DNA of 64,000 bases from Halorussus ruber. Lineage in GTDB: Archaea > Halobacteriota > Halobacteria > Halobacteriales > Haladaptataceae. Location: NCBI RefSeq assembly GCF_004765785.1, contig NZ_SBIT01000001.1:1-64000 (forward strand), written 5' to 3'. This document shows, piece by piece, positions 5,858 through 61,915 of this stretch. The translations under genes were made by a program, and so were the position numbers. Position 1 is the first letter of the stretch. Each line of letters starts with the position of its first letter. The notes beneath the pieces were generated by a model. The model did no database searches. It was not told the DNA's origin and saw only the letters and a list, made by a program, of their open reading frames with translations.

Positions 5858-5935
5858 CTCGAAAGCCCTCGCGCGGTTCGCGGTCGCCCTTTCAGTCCGC
5901 CAGGGATGCGGTTGGAACACCGAGCGTAGTGCAGC
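5858..5935 (+). repeat. Foldback repeat family, minimal copy
   Basis: CGAAAGCCCTCGCGCGGTTCGCGGTCG is split here into recognisable left-end bases (GAAAGCCCTCG) fused directly to right-end bases (CCCTTTCAGTCC) followed by the family's tail CACCGAGCG at about 5918. The inner stems are missing. It appears to be a collapsed relic of the element that is complete at 24858-25019. Confidence 0.65.
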
Positions 5936-17714: not shown

Positions 17715-17935
17715 GATAATAAAACTAGGACCTTAATTGGGTTTGTGATCGAGTCCGTCGTCGATTCGGGTAATCGGTTCGTCTGCTCTCTTAGCAGGTC
17801 TACGTCCGGTACCACGCCGCGATTTAAAAGAGTTGGCGAACCTGAGTGAAAGTAATTTACGGCCTCGGCACTCATAGGGCTCGTCACGACTGGTTGCCGA
17901 GACCAGTTCGGAGCGCGTGCCTCGTCATCGGCCAC
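17705..17935 (-). CDS. Short hypothetical frame overlapping the methyltransferase start
   Basis: 76 residues beginning MADDEARAPNWSRQPVVTSP. Its stop overlaps the second ATG of the methyltransferase as ATGA (17708-17705), a form often seen in coupled genes. No family is recognised and the C-terminal part is rich in small hydrophobics. It could be a leader peptide of the island or a chance frame; confidence is low. Confidence 0.3.
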   Translation of the reverse strand: MADDEARAPNWSRQPVVTSPMSAEAVNYFHSGSPTLLNRGVVPDVDLLREQTNRLPESTTDSITNPIKVLVLLSCR

Positions 17936-24857: not shown

Positions 24858-25019
24858 CGAAAGCCCCCGCCCGGTCGCGGTCGCGTGAGCGGAGCGAACG
24901 TGACCTCGTAAGACGCGGTTTGTCTTCCGGCGGTCGCTCCTCGACATATCCGACGGACGTCGTTGCGACGGATAGGGGTCGAGGAGCGACCACGCAAGCG
25001 CGACCGGGCGGCCCCTTTC
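24858..25019 (+). repeat. Nested foldback repeat, complete copy (type member)
   Basis: Outer stem CCGCCCGGTCGCG at 24867-24879 pairs with CGCGACCGGGCGG at 24999-25011. Inside it, GGTCGCTCCTCGAC at 24932-24945 pairs with GTCGAGGAGCGACC at 24978-24991, and TATCCG/CGGATA at 24947 and 24969 forms the tip. A third module, AGACGCGGTTTGTCTTCC, lies between outer and middle stems. Borders are GAAAGCCCCCG on the left and GGCCCCTTTCAGTCC on the right; a tail with ACCGAGCGCATCC follows at about 25051. No reading frame is carried. Confidence 0.85.
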
Positions 25020-25181
25020 AGTCCACCCAGACGAGTGGATTGTTACACCGAGCGCATCCTGTCGGCTGGTTAGTCGTCCCGTTTTCGGTGGAAAGTCCCA
25101 CCGAGCACGTCCTCGGCAGTTGGTCGGCAGACTCACAATCCGAAAAAGCTTAGACTTACCGAGCGCCTACACGTTGTCCCT

Positions 25182-28731: not shown

Positions 28732-30669
28732 CTACCGCTCGAACCCCGGCAAGTCGCCGAGGAGGGCGTCTAGCTCCTCGTCCAGCACCTGCCGGAGTTC
28801 GCGGACGCCGGATTTGCCTTCGCGGTCGGGATTCGCCAGCACCCGGACCGTCTCGGCCCCGACAGCCACGAAGTCCAGTCCCAGTTTCTCGGCGGTCGCG
28901 CGCAGGCCGACTCCGGCGTCGGCCTGCCCGCTGGCCACCTTTCTGGCGGGACTCTCGTGAGCTTTCGCGGCCAACTCGAAGCCGTCGATGGACTCGACGA
29001 GGTCGTGGCGCGAGGAGCCACGCTCGTCGGCGAGGTCGGCGAGCGCGTTGCCGAGACTGGTCCGAAGCCCGGAGTCGCTCCCCCGGTTGACGAACCGCAG
29101 GTCGCGGTCCACGAGGTCGGCGAGGTCCGAAATCTCCTCGGGGTTCCCGGCGGGCACGACCAGTCCCCACTCGCGCTGGTAGGAAGCCAGTTCGTCGGCG
29201 TCGATGTCCCTGTCGGCCGACTCGGCGGCCGACGCGACCGCGAAGTCCGGCACGCCGTCGCGGAGTCGCCGCAGCCCCTCGCGGGACCCGACCGAGAGGT
29301 AGCGCGGTCGTTCGAGGCTGTCGAGCAGTCGGGCCAGCGCGGGGTCGTCCTCGCCGACGCCGAGGAGGGTCGGCGGGCGCACGTCCGGCGAGAAGAGTTG
29401 GACCTCGACCGTCTCGCCCTCGGCGACGTAGGCGGTGTCGGGCGGGACCTCGACCACGCCGTCGGCCTCCACGAGGCTGGTGGTCGCGCCGCTGCCCTTG
29501 TCCACGACGTAGGCCAGCAGGTCGCCGCTCGCGGTTCCACCGCTCGCATTCGAGGCACCGGGTGCCTCGCCGATTTCGGTCAGGCCGACCGGCATCATCC
29601 GCATCCGACCCTCGCCGTATCGCTCCTCGGTCGCCATCCGGGCCTCGACGATTGCGGTGGCTGGTTCGGGGACTCCGGCGGCCTCGCGGATGGCGGGCGC
29701 GACGAACGTCCGGAAGATGGTGAGCGCCGAGACGGGGTAGCCGGGGAGTCCAACGTAGGCGGAGTCTGCGACTCTGCCGACCAGCATCGGCTTGCCGGGC
29801 TTGACCGCGACGCCGTGGAGCAGGAGTTCGCCGCGCTCCTCGATGACGCGGTAGATGACGTCCACCGCGCTGGCGCTCGTGGAGCCAGACGAGAGGACGA
29901 GGTCGCACTCGTCGGCGGCCTCGCGGAGGATGCGCTCCATCTCGTCGTAGTCGTCGCCAGCGTGCGGGTAGAGTGCTGGCTCGCCGCCCGCTTCTTCCAC
30001 GGCGGCGGCGATGGTGTAGCTGTTCACGTCGTAAATCTGGCCCGCCGCGCTGGTTAGCTCCTCGCCGGGCCGGACCAACTCGTCGCCGGTCGAGACGATG
30101 CCGACGGTGGGCGTCCCGCGGACCGGGACCTCCTCGACGCCGAGCGCCGAGAGGAGGCCGATTTCGCGCGCCGTGAGCCGGGTTCCGGGGCCGAGCGCCC
30201 GTTCTCCCGCCGCCACGTCGGCCCCGGCGAGCATCACGTGGTCGCCGGGTGCGACCGCGGTCCGGATTTCGACCTTTGCGGCCTCTTCTCTCTCGTCCGT
30301 CCGCTCGACCATCACCACGGCGTCCGCGCCGTCGGGCATGACCGCGCCGGTCGAGATTTCGGCGGCTTGGCCCTCCGCGACTTCTACGTCGGGTTCCGCT
30401 CCGGCGTGGACCGTCCCGACGAGGTCGAGGAGGGCGGGGTCCGACTCGTCCGCGCCGAAGGTGTCCCGCGCCTGGACCGCGTAGCCGTCCATGCTCGCCC
30501 GGTCGAACCCCGGCACGTCGAGGCCGGCGTCGATTCGCTCGGCGAGGACTCGGCCTCTGGCTTCTTCGAGCGGGACGCGCTCGGGGTCGGGGGTCAAATC
30601 GAGGCTGGCGATTGCTTCGCGGGCGTCCTCGGGGTCCGAGAGGTCTCTGAACTCTTTTCGGTCAGTCAT
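28732..30669 (-). CDS. moeA: Molybdopterin molybdenumtransferase fused to a substrate-binding domain
   Basis: 645 residues. The N-terminal 400 form MoeA (EARGRVLAERIDAGLDVPGF, GAVMPDGADAVVMVERTDE, STGDELVRPGE, SSGSTSASAVDVIYRV, GKPMLVGRV). The C-terminal 210 (LARLLDSLERPRYLSVGSRE, GSDSGLRTSLGNALADLADE) looks like a PBP/LysR-type ligand domain, a known archaeal fusion that may sense molybdate or Moco. It inserts molybdate into molybdopterin. Confidence 0.9.
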   Translation of the reverse strand: MTDRKEFRDLSDPEDAREAIASLDLTPDPERVPLEEARGRVLAERIDAGLDVPGFDRASMDGYAVQARDTFGADESDPALLDLVGTVHAGAEPDVEVAEGQAAEISTGAVMPDGADAVVMVERTDEREEAAKVEIRTAVAPGDHVMLAGADVAAGERALGPGTRLTAREIGLLSALGVEEVPVRGTPTVGIVSTGDELVRPGEELTSAAGQIYDVNSYTIAAAVEEAGGEPALYPHAGDDYDEMERILREAADECDLVLSSGSTSASAVDVIYRVIEERGELLLHGVAVKPGKPMLVGRVADSAYVGLPGYPVSALTIFRTFVAPAIREAAGVPEPATAIVEARMATEERYGEGRMRMMPVGLTEIGEAPGASNASGGTASGDLLAYVVDKGSGATTSLVEADGVVEVPPDTAYVAEGETVEVQLFSPDVRPPTLLGVGEDDPALARLLDSLERPRYLSVGSREGLRRLRDGVPDFAVASAAESADRDIDADELASYQREWGLVVPAGNPEEISDLADLVDRDLRFVNRGSDSGLRTSLGNALADLADERGSSRHDLVESIDGFELAAKAHESPARKVASGQADAGVGLRATAEKLGLDFVAVGAETVRVLANPDREGKSGVRELRQVLDEELDALLGDLPGFER

Positions 30670-30776
30670 TGTTTGTTGGTTCCTTGTGGGGTTTGGTGGT
30701 TGGCTGGTGTTTTCGGGGTTCTACGCGGGTGAAGTGAGTCCGAAGTGACAGCAGAAGAAGCGGAGATGAACGCCTC

Positions 30777-30970
30777 TGAAGCCCCCGCCCGGTCGCTACA
30801 CAAGAGGAATAGGTCAAGACCGACAGCAGAAGATTCGGAGATGAACGCCTCTGAATCCCCCGCCCGCTCGCGGTCGCTCAGCGACATATCCGCGGCTCTC
30901 CGCACCGCCCGCCGCGGATAGCGGTCGCTGAGGCGACCACGTAAACGCGACCGGGCGGCCCCTTCATCCT
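30777..30970 (+). repeat. Nested foldback repeat with duplicated left end
   Basis: A solo left end at 30778-30796 is followed 75 bp later, with the same GACAGCAGAAG lead-in at 30747 and 30822, by a full copy. Outer stem 30860-30872 with 30946-30958; middle stem GGTCGCTCAGCGAC (30872-30885) with GTCGCTGAGGCGACC (30924-30938); tip TATCCGCGG (30887-30895) with CCGCGGATA (30912-30920), perfect. It lies between the two moeA genes. Confidence 0.85.
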
Positions 30971-30998
30971 CCCGAACCGCACCGCGACCGCGGGCCAC

Positions 30999-31107
30999 GG
31001 GCCTCCCCAACCGATTGCGGTCCTCGGCTTCGCCTGCGGTCCTCATCCCTCGCGCGGAGAGGGCGCGGCGCACGAGAGCGCCGCGCCAGCGCGCGCCAAC
31101 CGCAGAC
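30999..31107 (+). repeat. Second hairpin module, copy 1
   Basis: GCCTCCCCAACC at 31001-31012 and TCCCTCGCGCGG at 31046-31057 frame a hairpin GGCGCGGCG (31062-31070), loop of eight, CGCCGCGCC (31079-31087), then GCGCCAACCGCA. The same arrangement follows the foldback copy at 54.6 kb, with a compensatory change in the stem. Confidence 0.8.
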
Positions 31108-31195
31108 AATTGTTTCTGTTTGCTTAGACAATACCTGGGTTTCCTAAATATTGGAAGATACGTGTCTGAACGCCGGGCGTGATTTTCGTCCCACT

Positions 31196-32422
31196 TCACG
31201 CCGACCACTCCCAGTCCTGCACGGAGACCGTCTCGCCCTCCGGAATCCCCTCGCGGCCCTCGGGCACCTCGACCCAGCCGTCGGCGAGCGCGACGCTGGA
31301 GAGGACGCCCGAACCGGAGGCTCTGGTCGGCGTGGCGGTCGTTTCGCCGTCCTCGCCCGCGCCGAGTTGCACCCGAGCGAAGGTCCGGATGCCGGGTTCG
31401 CTCCGAATCTTGCGGTCGAGTCGCGCCTCCGTGGTGGGGAAGGAGTCTCGCGGGAGTCCGCCGACCGCCTTCATCGCGGGCCGGAGGAACTGGACCGCGT
31501 TGATGATGCAGGCGACGGGGTAGCCCGGAAGCATGACGACGGGGGTGTCCTCCACGACGCCCACCGCGACCGGGTGGCCGGGCTTGAGCGCGACGCCGTG
31601 GAATAGGATTTCGCCGAGGTCGGCCACGACTTCGGGAAGCAGGTCGCGCTCGCCGACCGAGGAGCCACCGGTGGTGACCACCACGTCCTTCGTCAGGTCG
31701 CGCTGGACGGCCGCCCGGAGCGCGTCGGGGTCGTCGGTCACCACGTCGCGGTAGGTGGCCTTGCCGCCCCACCGCTTGACGTAGCGCGAGACCGTCAGCC
31801 CGTTGGTCTCGACCACTTCGCCGGGATTCGGGTCCGACTGGACCAGTTCTTCGCCCGTCGGAATCACCCCGACCGTGGGGCGCTCGCGGACTTCGACGGT
31901 ATCGACGCCCACGGACTTGAGCAGGCCCAAGTCGGACGGTCGGAGTCGATGGCCGGGGTCGTAGAGATGCTGGCCCTCCGCCACGTCCTCGCCGACCGGC
32001 GCGACGTTCTCGCCCTCCGCCACGGCGTCGAAAATCTCTACTTCGTCGCCGAACTCGTCTACCTGCTCTATCATCACCACCGCGTTCGCCCGGTCAGGGA
32101 GTTCGCTTCCGGTGTGGACCCGGACCGCCGAGTCGGGGGTCAGCTTTTCGCTCTGACGAAGCACCTCTGGCGACCGGTCGCTCGCGCCGAAGGTGTCCTC
32201 GGCCCGGACCGCGTAGCCGTCCATCGCGGCCCGCGGGTAGTGGGGGACGTTTCGCGCCGCGACGACCTCCTCGGCGAGGACTCGGCCGTCTGCGGAGGTA
32301 AGGGGGACCTCCTCGGTCCGGTCGTGGGGAGCCACCGCGTCGAGGAGGCGCTTTCGGGCCTCGCCGATGCGGGTCTTGTCCTTGAACCCGGACTGCTTGC
32401 GGTCCGGTTGGTCTTCGCTCAT
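31196..32422 (-). CDS. moeA: Molybdopterin molybdenumtransferase (second MoeA)
   Basis: 408 residues, single MoeA: EARKRLLDAVAPHDRTEEVPL, GSELPDRANAVVMIEQVDE, PTGEELVQSDPNPGEVVETN, TGGSSVGERDLLPEVVADLG, GHPVAVGVVEDTPVVML. No fused domain. The two MoeA proteins differ enough to suggest separate metal or substrate roles in cofactor synthesis. The ATG at 32422 gives a natural family start; 32482 adds 20 poorly conserved residues. Confidence 0.9.
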   Translation of the reverse strand: MSEDQPDRKQSGFKDKTRIGEARKRLLDAVAPHDRTEEVPLTSADGRVLAEEVVAARNVPHYPRAAMDGYAVRAEDTFGASDRSPEVLRQSEKLTPDSAVRVHTGSELPDRANAVVMIEQVDEFGDEVEIFDAVAEGENVAPVGEDVAEGQHLYDPGHRLRPSDLGLLKSVGVDTVEVRERPTVGVIPTGEELVQSDPNPGEVVETNGLTVSRYVKRWGGKATYRDVVTDDPDALRAAVQRDLTKDVVVTTGGSSVGERDLLPEVVADLGEILFHGVALKPGHPVAVGVVEDTPVVMLPGYPVACIINAVQFLRPAMKAVGGLPRDSFPTTEARLDRKIRSEPGIRTFARVQLGAGEDGETTATPTRASGSGVLSSVALADGWVEVPEGREGIPEGETVSVQDWEWSA

Positions 32423-44425: not shown

Positions 44426-44989
44426 ATGGTACACTCGAACGACGAAGCGACTCTTTCCCGGCGAAGCATCCTGAAACGGACCACTGGCGCGGTAGCGGTC
44501 GCGGTCGGCGGCGGTAGTCTCGCGGGTGCCGAAGTCGGTGCCGCCCGCCGCGGCGCGGACTCTCGCGCTGACTCCGGCGTTGACTCTCGCGCTGACTCCG
44601 GCGTTGACTCTCGCGCTGACTCCGGCGTTGACTCTCGCGCTGATTCTCGCGGTGGCTCCGGTACTGACTCCCGCGAGGTCTACGAGGCCGTCACCTGCGG
44701 CGACGACCACTCGGAGGGGAGTCGTCTCACGGTCGGGAGGTACTGCGAAGGCGATGGCGACTGCGACGTGATACAGTTGGCCGGACTCTCGCCCGACTGT
44801 CACACCGAGGAGAAGCGCCTCTACGTCGTCCTCCCCGACACCGACCCGACCGTCTGGATGAACCCCCAGAAGGGCGAGATTCCGCCGGGGACCTACCGCG
44901 TGGACCGGGCCGAGCGATGCGAGGGGAGCGCGGGCGAGTGCGACGGCGAGGACCTCTATCACCTGTCGCTCCGGCCGGTCGAGAGCTAA
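44426..44989 (+). CDS. Tat-exported Cys-rich protein with DSRADSGV repeats
   Basis: 188 residues from the ATG at 44426. Twin-Arg signal SRRSILKRTTGAVAVAVGG then ALA-rich region. The mature N-terminus has three to four copies of Asp-Ser-Arg-Ala-Asp-Ser-Gly-Val encoded by a 24-bp tandem repeat. The C-terminal half contains eight or so cysteines (VTCGDD, YCEGDGDCDV, SPDCHTEEKR, RCEGSAGECDG) that may form disulfides outside the cell. Function unknown. Confidence 0.65.
   Translation: MVHSNDEATLSRRSILKRTTGAVAVAVGGGSLAGAEVGAARRGADSRADSGVDSRADSGVDSRADSGVDSRADSRGGSGTDSREVYEAVTCGDDHSEGSRLTVGRYCEGDGDCDVIQLAGLSPDCHTEEKRLYVVLPDTDPTVWMNPQKGEIPPGTYRVDRAERCEGSAGECDGEDLYHLSLRPVES
44558..44653 (+). repeat. 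24-bp tandem repeat inside a Tat-exported protein gene
   Basis: GACTCTCGCGCTGACTCCGG-type units start at 44558, 44582 and 44606, with a decayed fourth at 44630. The period is 24 bp, so copy-number changes keep the reading frame and vary the length of an acidic linker. Confidence 0.9.
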
Positions 44990-47188: not shown

Positions 47189-47422
47189 CGGGTGGGATGA
47201 AGGGGTCGGCCGGTCGCGTTCATCTTGGTCGTCTGAGCGACCCCTATCGTAGGCCGGGCGGTGTCTCACCGAACGGAGTGAGGTCGTTCGAAAGGCGAAG
47301 CCTTTCGTGATCACGAAAATCTCCGATTTTCGGACGATGATGGCTCGGAAGACGCGGTTTGTCTTCCGGCGCGGAGAGTCGCGGATATGTCACTCAGCGA
47401 CCGCGACCGGGCGAGGGCTTCA
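47189..47422 (-). repeat. Nested foldback repeat, longest copy with inserted hairpins
   Basis: Reverse orientation. Left-end bases GAAGCCCTCGCCCGGTCGCG are at 47421-47402, and right-end bases GGTCGGCCGGTCG on the complementary side at about 47201-47214. Between the middle stems there is a chain of perfect small hairpins: CGGAAGAC/GTCTTCCG, CGAAAATC/GATTTTCG, CGAAAGGC/GCCTTTCG and CTCAC/GTGAG. The AGACGCGGTTTGTCTTCC module of this copy is also in the type copy at 24.9 kb. No reading frame is carried. Confidence 0.8.
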
Positions 47423-48317: not shown

Positions 48318-48392
48318 TGAAGCCCCCGCCCGCTCGCGGTCACGCTCGGTTCCCTCGCGTGACCGCGACCGGGCGGCCCCTTCATCCCACCC
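48318..48392 (+). repeat. Nested foldback repeat, short copy
   Basis: Left arm 48326-48345 pairs with right arm 48357-48376 over 20 bp with one mismatch; only eleven bases lie between. The middle stem is absent. Right border CCCCTTCATCCCACCC is as in the other copies, followed by the 27-bp tail repeats. Confidence 0.85.
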
Positions 48393-48407
48393 ATGGTTGA
48401 TAGTGAC

Positions 48408-48497
48408 ACCGAGCGCATCCTGATGGCCTGTCCCACCGAGCGCATCCTGATGGCCTGTCCCACCGAGCGCATCCCGGTGGTTTACTCCACCGAGCGC
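48408..48497 (+). repeat. 27-bp tandem repeat of the ACCGAGCGC tail
   Basis: ACCGAGCGC occurs at 48408, 48435, 48462 and 48489, exactly 27 bp apart; units read ACCGAGCGCATCCTGATGGC. The same tail, ACCGAGCGCATCC, follows the foldback copy at about 25051, so it belongs with that family. The period of 27 keeps a peptide frame (TERILMACP) open into the DUF92 gene. Confidence 0.9.
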
Positions 48498-54528: not shown

Positions 54529-54647
54529 ACGCCTCTTGAAGCCCCGCCCGGTCGCGGTCGCTCTGCGGCATATCCGACGGACGTGGTTGCGACGGATAGG
54601 GGCCGCAGAGCGACCAAGCGTTGCGCGACCGGGCGGCCCCTTCATCC
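54529..54647 (+). repeat. Nested foldback repeat, complete copy with a covaried middle stem
   Basis: Outer stem CCGCCCGGTCGCG (54544-54556) with CGCGACCGGGCGG (54624-54636). Middle stem GGTCGCTCTGCGGC (54556-54569) with GCCGCAGAGCGACC (54602-54615), perfect over 14 bp but different from the stem at 24.9 kb. Left lead-in GAACGCCTCTTGAAGCC matches that at 30.8 kb; right border GGCCCCTTCATCC. Confidence 0.85.
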
Positions 54648-54750
54648 GCCGGAGGACAAACAGCGTCCTCCGAGTCCTCGTTCGCTCACGGGGACACCCG
54701 ACGGTGGTTGTTGGGTCGGGCGTCTGCCGGTGGAAAGAGCCACCGAGCGC

Positions 54751-61789: not shown

Positions 61790-61915
61790 CGTCGGGGATG
61801 CGCTCGGTGAGTCGTTCCACCGGGACGCGCTCGACTGACCAACCGCTAGTCCGGGTGGACTGAAGGGGTCGGCCGGTCGTGCCCTGAAGGGACTTGGTCG
61901 CTTCAGCGTGTTGAA
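61790..61915 (-). repeat. Foldback repeat family, right-end fragment with tail
   Basis: Reverse orientation. The tail ACCGAGCGCATCC (reverse complement GGATGCGCTCGGT) is near 61797, then right-border GAAGGGGTCGGCCGG at about 61863-61880 and the right half of a middle stem. The left half is missing. Confidence 0.6.

What the first reader, a model, noticed from the sequence alone, without database searches (positions are those of the whole stretch)
24858..25019. Dispersed nested foldback element with compensatory changes in its middle stem
Seen directly: complete or partial copies lie at about 24.9, 30.9, 47.3, 48.3 and 54.6 kb, relics at 5.9 and 61.9 kb. The outer inverted repeat CCGCCCGGTCGCG/CGCGACCGGGCGG is kept, but the middle stem differs: GGTCGCTCCTCGAC with GTCGAGGAGCGACC here, GGTCGCTCTGCGGC with GCCGCAGAGCGACC at 54.6 kb, and GGTCGCTCAGCGAC with GTCGCTGAGGCGACC at 30.9 kb. 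Both arms change together, so pairing is what is conserved. That points to a structured RNA, a cruciform or a foldback mobile element recognised by shape.
Basis: partly seen in the sequence, partly recalled or inferred. Interest (0 to 1): 0.8.

Follow-up and report, generated by a model that had tools for sequence, protein, structure and literature searches.

The report
Haloarchaeal nested-hairpin DNA repeat family
About a hundred copies of a short non-coding DNA element that folds back into a nested hairpin lie between the genes of this salt-loving archaeon; relatives occur across the haloarchaea, keep their folded shape while the stem letters change freely, and look like mobile DNA maintained by its shape rather than a conventional RNA gene.

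Summary
The copy at 24860-25020 is one of about 100 near-identical-ended copies in this Halorussus genome (84 exact 19-mer ends). A covariance model finds the element in 17 of 18 same-genus genomes and in 37 of 194 haloarchaeal genomes (18 genera); of 393 genomes across the phylum, all 13 with a match lie in this order. It is absent from Rfam. Across genera the stem sequences differ almost wholly yet pair (outer stem 97% with its own partner, 73% with another copy's). Three features stay: a CCC/CCC notch, an A/GNG internal loop and a CAGTCCCRCCC tail. Base-pair changes carry no RNA signature: G.T and A.C mismatches are about equal (19:24, 11:16) against 56:14 in RNase P RNA of the same class. 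Two copies have the inner part inverted, a sign of hairpin template switching. One 164-nt core is 98% identical at two sites with unrelated flanks; sites differ between species. Best reading: a non-autonomous foldback DNA element, spread and kept matched at DNA level, probably recognised by shape. Its enzyme, boundaries and target-site duplication were not found. Closest known kinds: Haloquadratum small mobile repeats and PATEs, REPINs, BOX, nested mitochondrial hairpins. New variant of a known kind.

The parts
24860..25020 (+). Core foldback element, 24.9 kb copy (161 nt), AAAG/CTTT foot to foot, with a double-hairpin module in the left arm
   Evidence: R1 hit E 9.1e-11; BLAST relatives genome-wide
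24867..24879 (+). Outer stem P1 left arm CCGCCCGGTCGCG; pairs with 24999-25011
   Evidence: exact matches; pairing across genera
24999..25011 (+). Outer stem P1 right arm CGCGACCGGGCGG
24880..24931 (-). Double-hairpin module inserted at the P1/P2 junction (GGAAGACAAACCGCGTCTTAC at 24908-24928); limits approximate
   Evidence: 95 copies genome-wide; read
24932..24945 (+). Middle stem P2 left arm GGTCGCTCCTCGAC; pairs with 24978-24991
   Evidence: covariation
24978..24991 (+). Middle stem P2 right arm GTCGAGGAGCGACC
30853..30967 (+). Core element, 30.9 kb copy, without inserted module, between two moeA-like genes
   Evidence: R1 hit E 3.7e-22; genes
30760..30852 (+). Left units: tandem repeat carrying only the left half of the hairpin (CCGCCCGGTCGCT at 30785-30797)
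   Evidence: same arrangement in L061, L036, L058, L222
47189..47424 (-). Divergent copy containing a double-hairpin module with a further hairpin nested in it; limits by eye
   Evidence: partial R1 hit 47197-47268 E 0.007; module at 47347-47367
48319..48385 (+). Minimal copy: outer stem plus one GGTCACGC hairpin
   Evidence: R1 hit E 2.9e-8
48407..48474 (+). Right-hand 27-nt tandem repeat array following the 48.3 kb core
   Evidence: TRF 100% match; same repeat after most copies
54538..54645 (+). Core element, 54.6 kb copy; a double-hairpin module follows in its tail (about 54649-54700)
   Evidence: R1 hit E 5.3e-19
5858..5897 (+). Collapsed relic: left foot, short stem, right foot
   Evidence: read by eye
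61853..61905 (-). Relic of a right end (GGACTGAAGGGGTCGGCCGGTCG)
   Evidence: read by eye

Best explanation
A family of short non-coding, non-autonomous foldback DNA elements found across haloarchaea. Shown here: about 100 intergenic copies, a conserved nested-hairpin shape with freely changing stems, conserved unpaired notches, site differences between species, dispersal of whole cores, module insertion and reassortment of modules. Inferred: (1) the folded DNA (cruciform or hairpin) is what a trans-acting DNA enzyme recognises, the CCC/CCC notch, A/GNG loop and CAGTCCCRCCC tail being its contacts; (2) stem arms are kept complementary largely by copying one arm from the other during replication (hairpin template switching) and by conversion between copies, not by slow paired point mutations under RNA selection; (3) the smaller double-hairpin module spreads in the same way and often lands in loops and junctions of the larger element.
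For: 84 exact and about 100 total copies, none inside a called gene. 17/18 genus genomes, sister genus, 37/194 class genomes; all 13 matching genomes of 393 from the phylum are in this order. Both-side changes: 210 cells against 62 shuffled and at most 41 slid. P1 pairs 97% with its own arm and 73% with others, 22 distinct arms in 36 copies, while the CCC/CCC loop stays in 34-36 of 36: matched arms with a kept mismatch mean a shape is selected, since copying alone would erase the notch. G.T:A.C is 19:24 in the genome and 11:16 class-wide against 56:14 for RNase P RNA, Fisher 2e-4 and 4e-4: symmetric between strands, as for DNA. Inner-part inversion in L066 and L095 (2 of 132), a by-product of template switching between inverted arms (PMC8604942). 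L058/L101 cores 98.2% identical over 164 nt with background-level flanks. 28 P2 alleles and 29 P3 alleles in 55 combinations among 68 copies. Orthologous secE-ftsZ and L37e-purF gaps: present in some species, absent in others, collapsed in G393.
Against: No transposase was linked: Y1 transposases do not track copy number (G147 and G393 have none but about 100 hits each), and genes beside low-copy elements in other genera look like housekeeping genes (read by eye). Intergenic DNA is too diverged between species to show a clean empty site or target-site duplication. Most loci share homologous left units and 27-nt right repeats, so core dispersal could be conversion between old loci rather than transposition. 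Haloarcula species keep one copy at the same locus, so some copies are long-resident. Inversions are rare (2/132).
Confidence: 0.55

Rival explanations
1. A structured non-coding RNA (small RNA or UTR element) whose helices are kept by selection on the transcript.
For: Very stable fold (z -5 to -8); strong covariation; conserved internal loops and a 3' single-stranded tail; inner part keeps one orientation in 130 of 132 copies.
Against: G.U is not favoured over A.C on either strand, unlike RNase P RNA of the same clade; paired transversions with no intermediates (for example C-G 26, G-C 26, 0 other); up to about 100 copies, species-specific sites, no preferred gene arrangement; no Rfam family; internal insertions of 50 to 180 nt tolerated.
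Confidence: 0.15
2. Purely mutational, selfish or neutral repeat: template switching and ectopic conversion alone spread and perfect the palindromes; no enzyme recognises them.
For: Arm homogenisation and inner inversions match known template switching (PMC8604942); allele reassortment; tandem left and right units; nested palindromes of Volvox organelles behave similarly (PMC2670323).
Against: Repeated copying of one arm from the other would erase the CCC/CCC and A/GNG mismatches, yet these are kept class-wide; the conserved tail CAGTCCCRCCC is unpaired; the inner part keeps one orientation in 130/132 copies.
Confidence: 0.22
3. A host chromosomal element (like REP/BIME sites for gyrase or a nucleoid protein) kept for organisation or DNA repair.
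For: Intergenic only, about 100 copies, neighbours biased to be read against the element (42 vs 17 tandem cases, p 0.0016).
Against: Zero to about 100 copies between sister species, sites not shared, present in only 37 of 194 genomes.
Confidence: 0.08

Closest known systems
Small mobile repeats (SMR-A) of Haloquadratum walsbyi (PMC3119063)
   Same: About 110 bp, prominent inverted terminal repeats, no coding capacity, tens of copies, ends unlike any known transposon there, tendency to sit in palindromes of other elements, mode of movement unknown.
   Different: SMR-A are described as highly conserved within a type; here stems vary freely while pairing, the fold is shared across genera, and tandem left and right units flank it. 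No SMR-A sequences were available to compare.
PATEs and IS605-type transposons (PMC3119063)
   Same: Palindromes and many non-coding copies in haloarchaea; IS200/IS605 hairpins are recognised as folded single strands (established knowledge).
   Different: One long nested hairpin with paired ends instead of two short subterminal palindromes and unpaired ends; copy number does not follow Y1 transposase genes.
REPINs and REP elements with RAYT transposases (PMC3116915, PMC3733652)
   Same: Short intergenic palindromes in about 100 copies, non-autonomous.
   Different: REP units are 20-40 bp, most with GTAG or CGTC tags; here 100-280 nt nested hairpins with a CAGTCCC tail and no linked Y1 gene.
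BOX elements of Streptococcus pneumoniae (PMC3049150)
   Same: Composite modular repeat with fixed outer parts, optional and repeated inner modules and a strong predicted fold.
   Different: No sequence relation looked for; here modules nest inside each other's loops and stems covary class-wide.
Nested palindromic elements of organelle DNA (Volvox PMC2670323; sponge hairpin elements PMC2800124; double-hairpin elements of Allomyces)
   Same: Short hairpin repeats inserted into one another, double hairpins, stems differing by complementary substitutions, intergenic spread.
   Different: Organelle genomes, mostly shorter and lineage-specific; this one is an archaeal chromosomal family conserved across a class with invariant unpaired notches.

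Membership tests
MITE (miniature inverted-repeat transposable element) | Terminal inverted repeats | tested here: met
   TGAA(A)G/CTT(T)CA plus P1 pair in about 97-98% of cells
MITE (miniature inverted-repeat transposable element) | Terminal repeats match a transposase-bearing element | not tested
   No autonomous partner noticed near low-copy elements (by eye); no systematic scan for one was made
MITE (miniature inverted-repeat transposable element) | Target-site duplication | tested here: inconclusive
   Flanks belong to left and right repeat units and orthologous gaps are too diverged
SMR (small mobile repeat) | Short, non-coding, inverted terminal repeats unrelated to known transposons, no target duplication | tested here: inconclusive
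   Short, non-coding and inverted ends met; duplication and transposon relation unresolved; HqIRS sequences not at hand
PATE / IS605-type | No terminal inverted repeats, palindromes near both ends | tested here: not met
   Single hairpin whose two ends pair with each other
REP/REPIN with RAYT | 20-40 bp palindrome with a GTAG or CGTC tag (most REPs) and a Y1 transposase in the genome | tested here: not met
   Different ends and size; genomes G147 and G393 have about 100 hits and no Y1_Tnp
Structured RNA family | Covariation with G.U tolerated over A.C, as expected of RNA | tested here: not met
   19:24 and 11:16 against 56:14 in RNase P RNA
Structured RNA family | Match to a described Rfam family | tested here: not met
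   None at gathering score at any copy in the window, none relevant at E<=1 at the 30.9 kb copy
Structured RNA family | Transcribed | not testable with these tools
   no expression data

The most novel reading that the evidence does not exclude
A class-wide archaeal mobile DNA system whose substrate is a folded duplex or hairpin recognised by shape (matched arms of any sequence, a fixed CCC/CCC notch, an A/GNG loop and a CAGTCCC tail) and moved by an enzyme unlike known Y1/HUH or DDE transposases, with a second, smaller double-hairpin element parasitising its loops.
Probability: 0.25. Interest if true: 0.85.

Novelty: new variant of a known kind. Interest (0 to 1): 0.62.

Why it matters
It gives a clear chromosomal case in which strong covariation, normally read as proof of a functional RNA, carries no RNA signature and points to DNA-level folding and copying; RNA-discovery pipelines would call this family a structured RNA. 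It also offers a natural data set (several hundred copies, many species) for studying hairpin template switching in archaea, and points to an unidentified factor that handles folded DNA in haloarchaea.

Tried and rejected
Terminator or promoter role: copies lie in divergent (20), convergent (18) and tandem (59) gaps with no rule. Y1 transposase/RAYT link: no tracking with copy number. Defining ends by empty sites: secE-ftsZ, L37e-purF and HAD-gene gaps compared over the genus; presence and absence clear, exact junctions not alignable. An exact 24-mer search of the class missed nearly all relatives because arm sequences differ by species; the covariance model was needed. Phage collection: no match. 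Literature searches for an earlier description in haloarchaea found only the Haloquadratum elements. One script for inner inversions had a faulty filter and was rerun.

Full report
WHAT IS THERE. The window lies on contig C1 of a 4.32 Mb haloarchaeal genome. BLAST places the nearest named plasmid relatives in Halorussus (family Haladaptataceae), and another relative on Haloarcula marismortui pNG500. The right-end 19-mer CGCGACCGGGCGGCCCCTT occurs 84 times exactly in the genome, and 104+98 times with up to 3 mismatches against 13 for the reversed control; many of the 3-mismatch hits should be left ends. I extracted 100 distinct copies.

ANATOMY. Core: foot P0 GAA(A)G/CTT(T)C, a symmetric CCC/CCC unpaired notch, outer stem P1 (13 bp), then a three-way junction with P2 (often with one bulged A), an A/GNG(G) internal loop, P3, an apical loop often CTCTCCGCACCGCCCG, and a short variable hairpin P4. 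RNA folding gives this structure with z-scores from -5.1 to -7.8. The core is 41 to 284 nt because of inserted modules. The commonest is a double hairpin (GGAAGACAAACCGCGTCTTCC plus a GTCAC/GTGAC-type hairpin), which occurs about 95 times in the genome, 45 of them within 330 bp of an extracted right end. It sits at the P1/P2 junction, in the P3 loop, beside P4, in the tail, or inside another copy of itself (read). To the left lie units that carry only the left half of the hairpin, sometimes in tandem (30760-30852; L061; L222 with 54-nt units). To the right lies a tandem 27-nt repeat.

DISTRIBUTION. A covariance model R1 built from 46 copies finds the element in 17 of 18 same-genus genomes with 1 to 146 hits (some hits are reverse-strand echoes of the self-complementary core), 6 of 9 sister-genus genomes, 37 of 194 genomes of the class in 18 genera, and 13 of 393 from the phylum, all 13 in this order. 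The MAG Halobacteriales archaeon SW_6_65_15 carries copies.

COVARIATION. On the cross-species alignment A2, 263 cells change on both sides against 96 for shuffles and at most 44 for slid registers. On the class-wide alignment A4 the figures are 210, 62 and 41 (two of its 38 rows are reverse-strand echoes). These alignments are fitted to the model and related copies are not independent, so the slid control and the cross-genus test matter more. In the cross-genus test, P1 has 22 different left arms in 36 copies, pairs 97% with its own right arm and 73% with those of other copies, while the CCC/CCC notch is kept in 34-36 of 36.

RNA OR DNA. If the helices were kept in an RNA, G.U should be tolerated far better than A.C. 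RNase P RNA from 30 haloarchaea gives 56:14; the element gives 19:24 in this genome and 11:16 class-wide under the same filter (pairs where either mismatch type exceeds 20% left out; Fisher 2e-4 and 4e-4). One exception is the junction pair at the base of P2, where G.T is common and goes with P4 type. Many changes are paired transversions with no intermediates, for example C-G 26, G-C 26, nothing else. This symmetry fits a cruciform, or arms copied from each other. Template switching between inverted arms homogenises arms and can invert the spacer (PMC8604942); two of 132 oriented copies, L066 and L095, have exactly such an inverted inner part. Copying alone would however also erase the mismatched notch and the A/GNG loop. 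Their conservation is the main reason to infer selection on a folded shape.

MOBILITY. None of the 100 copies lies inside a called gene (a simple codon-based caller). Orthologous gaps differ: L37e-purF holds the element in G000, G398 and G274 and not in G392, G400 or G147; secE-ftsZ holds it in G000, a collapsed form in G393, and no intact hairpin in the other genomes read. The cores of L058 and L101 are 98.2% identical over 164 nt while left and right flanks are at background similarity. P2 and P3 alleles are freely combined (28 and 29 alleles, 55 combinations in 68 copies). So cores and modules move between sites, by transposition, ectopic conversion or both. I could not separate these: flanks at most loci belong to the same left and right repeat families, and species are too diverged for exact empty sites. 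Y1 transposases do not track the element.

INTERPRETATION AND PLACE. Best reading: a non-autonomous foldback DNA element family, recognised by shape, with arms kept matched by hairpin-templated copying (confidence 0.55 for the whole; about 0.85 that it is DNA-level and not an RNA gene, my estimate). It works like small mobile repeats of Haloquadratum, REPINs, BOX and nested organelle hairpins, but membership in none of these was shown. Literature coverage is limited to open-licence papers, so an earlier description elsewhere cannot be excluded.

Noticed in passing
window 17861-17933 (-): C/D box small RNA sR-tMet, above the Rfam gathering score (62.5 bits); the only Rfam hit of the window.
   Followed up: no
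G000 genome-wide; window 47347-47367 and 24908-24928: Double-hairpin module GGNAGACAAACCGCGTCTNCC, 95 copies, about half not near an extracted core; its end pairs also vary together (GGA/TCC, GGG/CCC, GGC/GCC).
   Followed up: partly
L237, L238, L249, just after the core: In other genera a double-hairpin module sits in the tail between two CAGTCC copies, which could be a target duplication or part of the module.
   Followed up: partly
L240, L241, just after the core: A second right end (GGGACTGAAAGGGGC) follows in opposite orientation, so right ends stand tail to tail about 40 nt apart.
   Followed up: no
L244, L245, L246, L248, L255, L256: Several genomes of one other genus share one copy at the same site with the same flanks as Haloarcula marismortui pNG500 (there upstream of a SOSS-B-like protein gene), with P3 loops of two types.
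   Followed up: partly
window 28732-32422: Two moeA-like genes (one with an added PBP-like domain) flank the 30.9 kb copy in tandem.
   Followed up: no
window 44551-44675 and 1359-1485: Tandem repeats with 12/24/48-nt and 32-nt units.
   Followed up: no
L137 (G328, another family of the order), about 1330-1530: A diverged relative with the same feet and outer stem but a different inner part.
   Followed up: no
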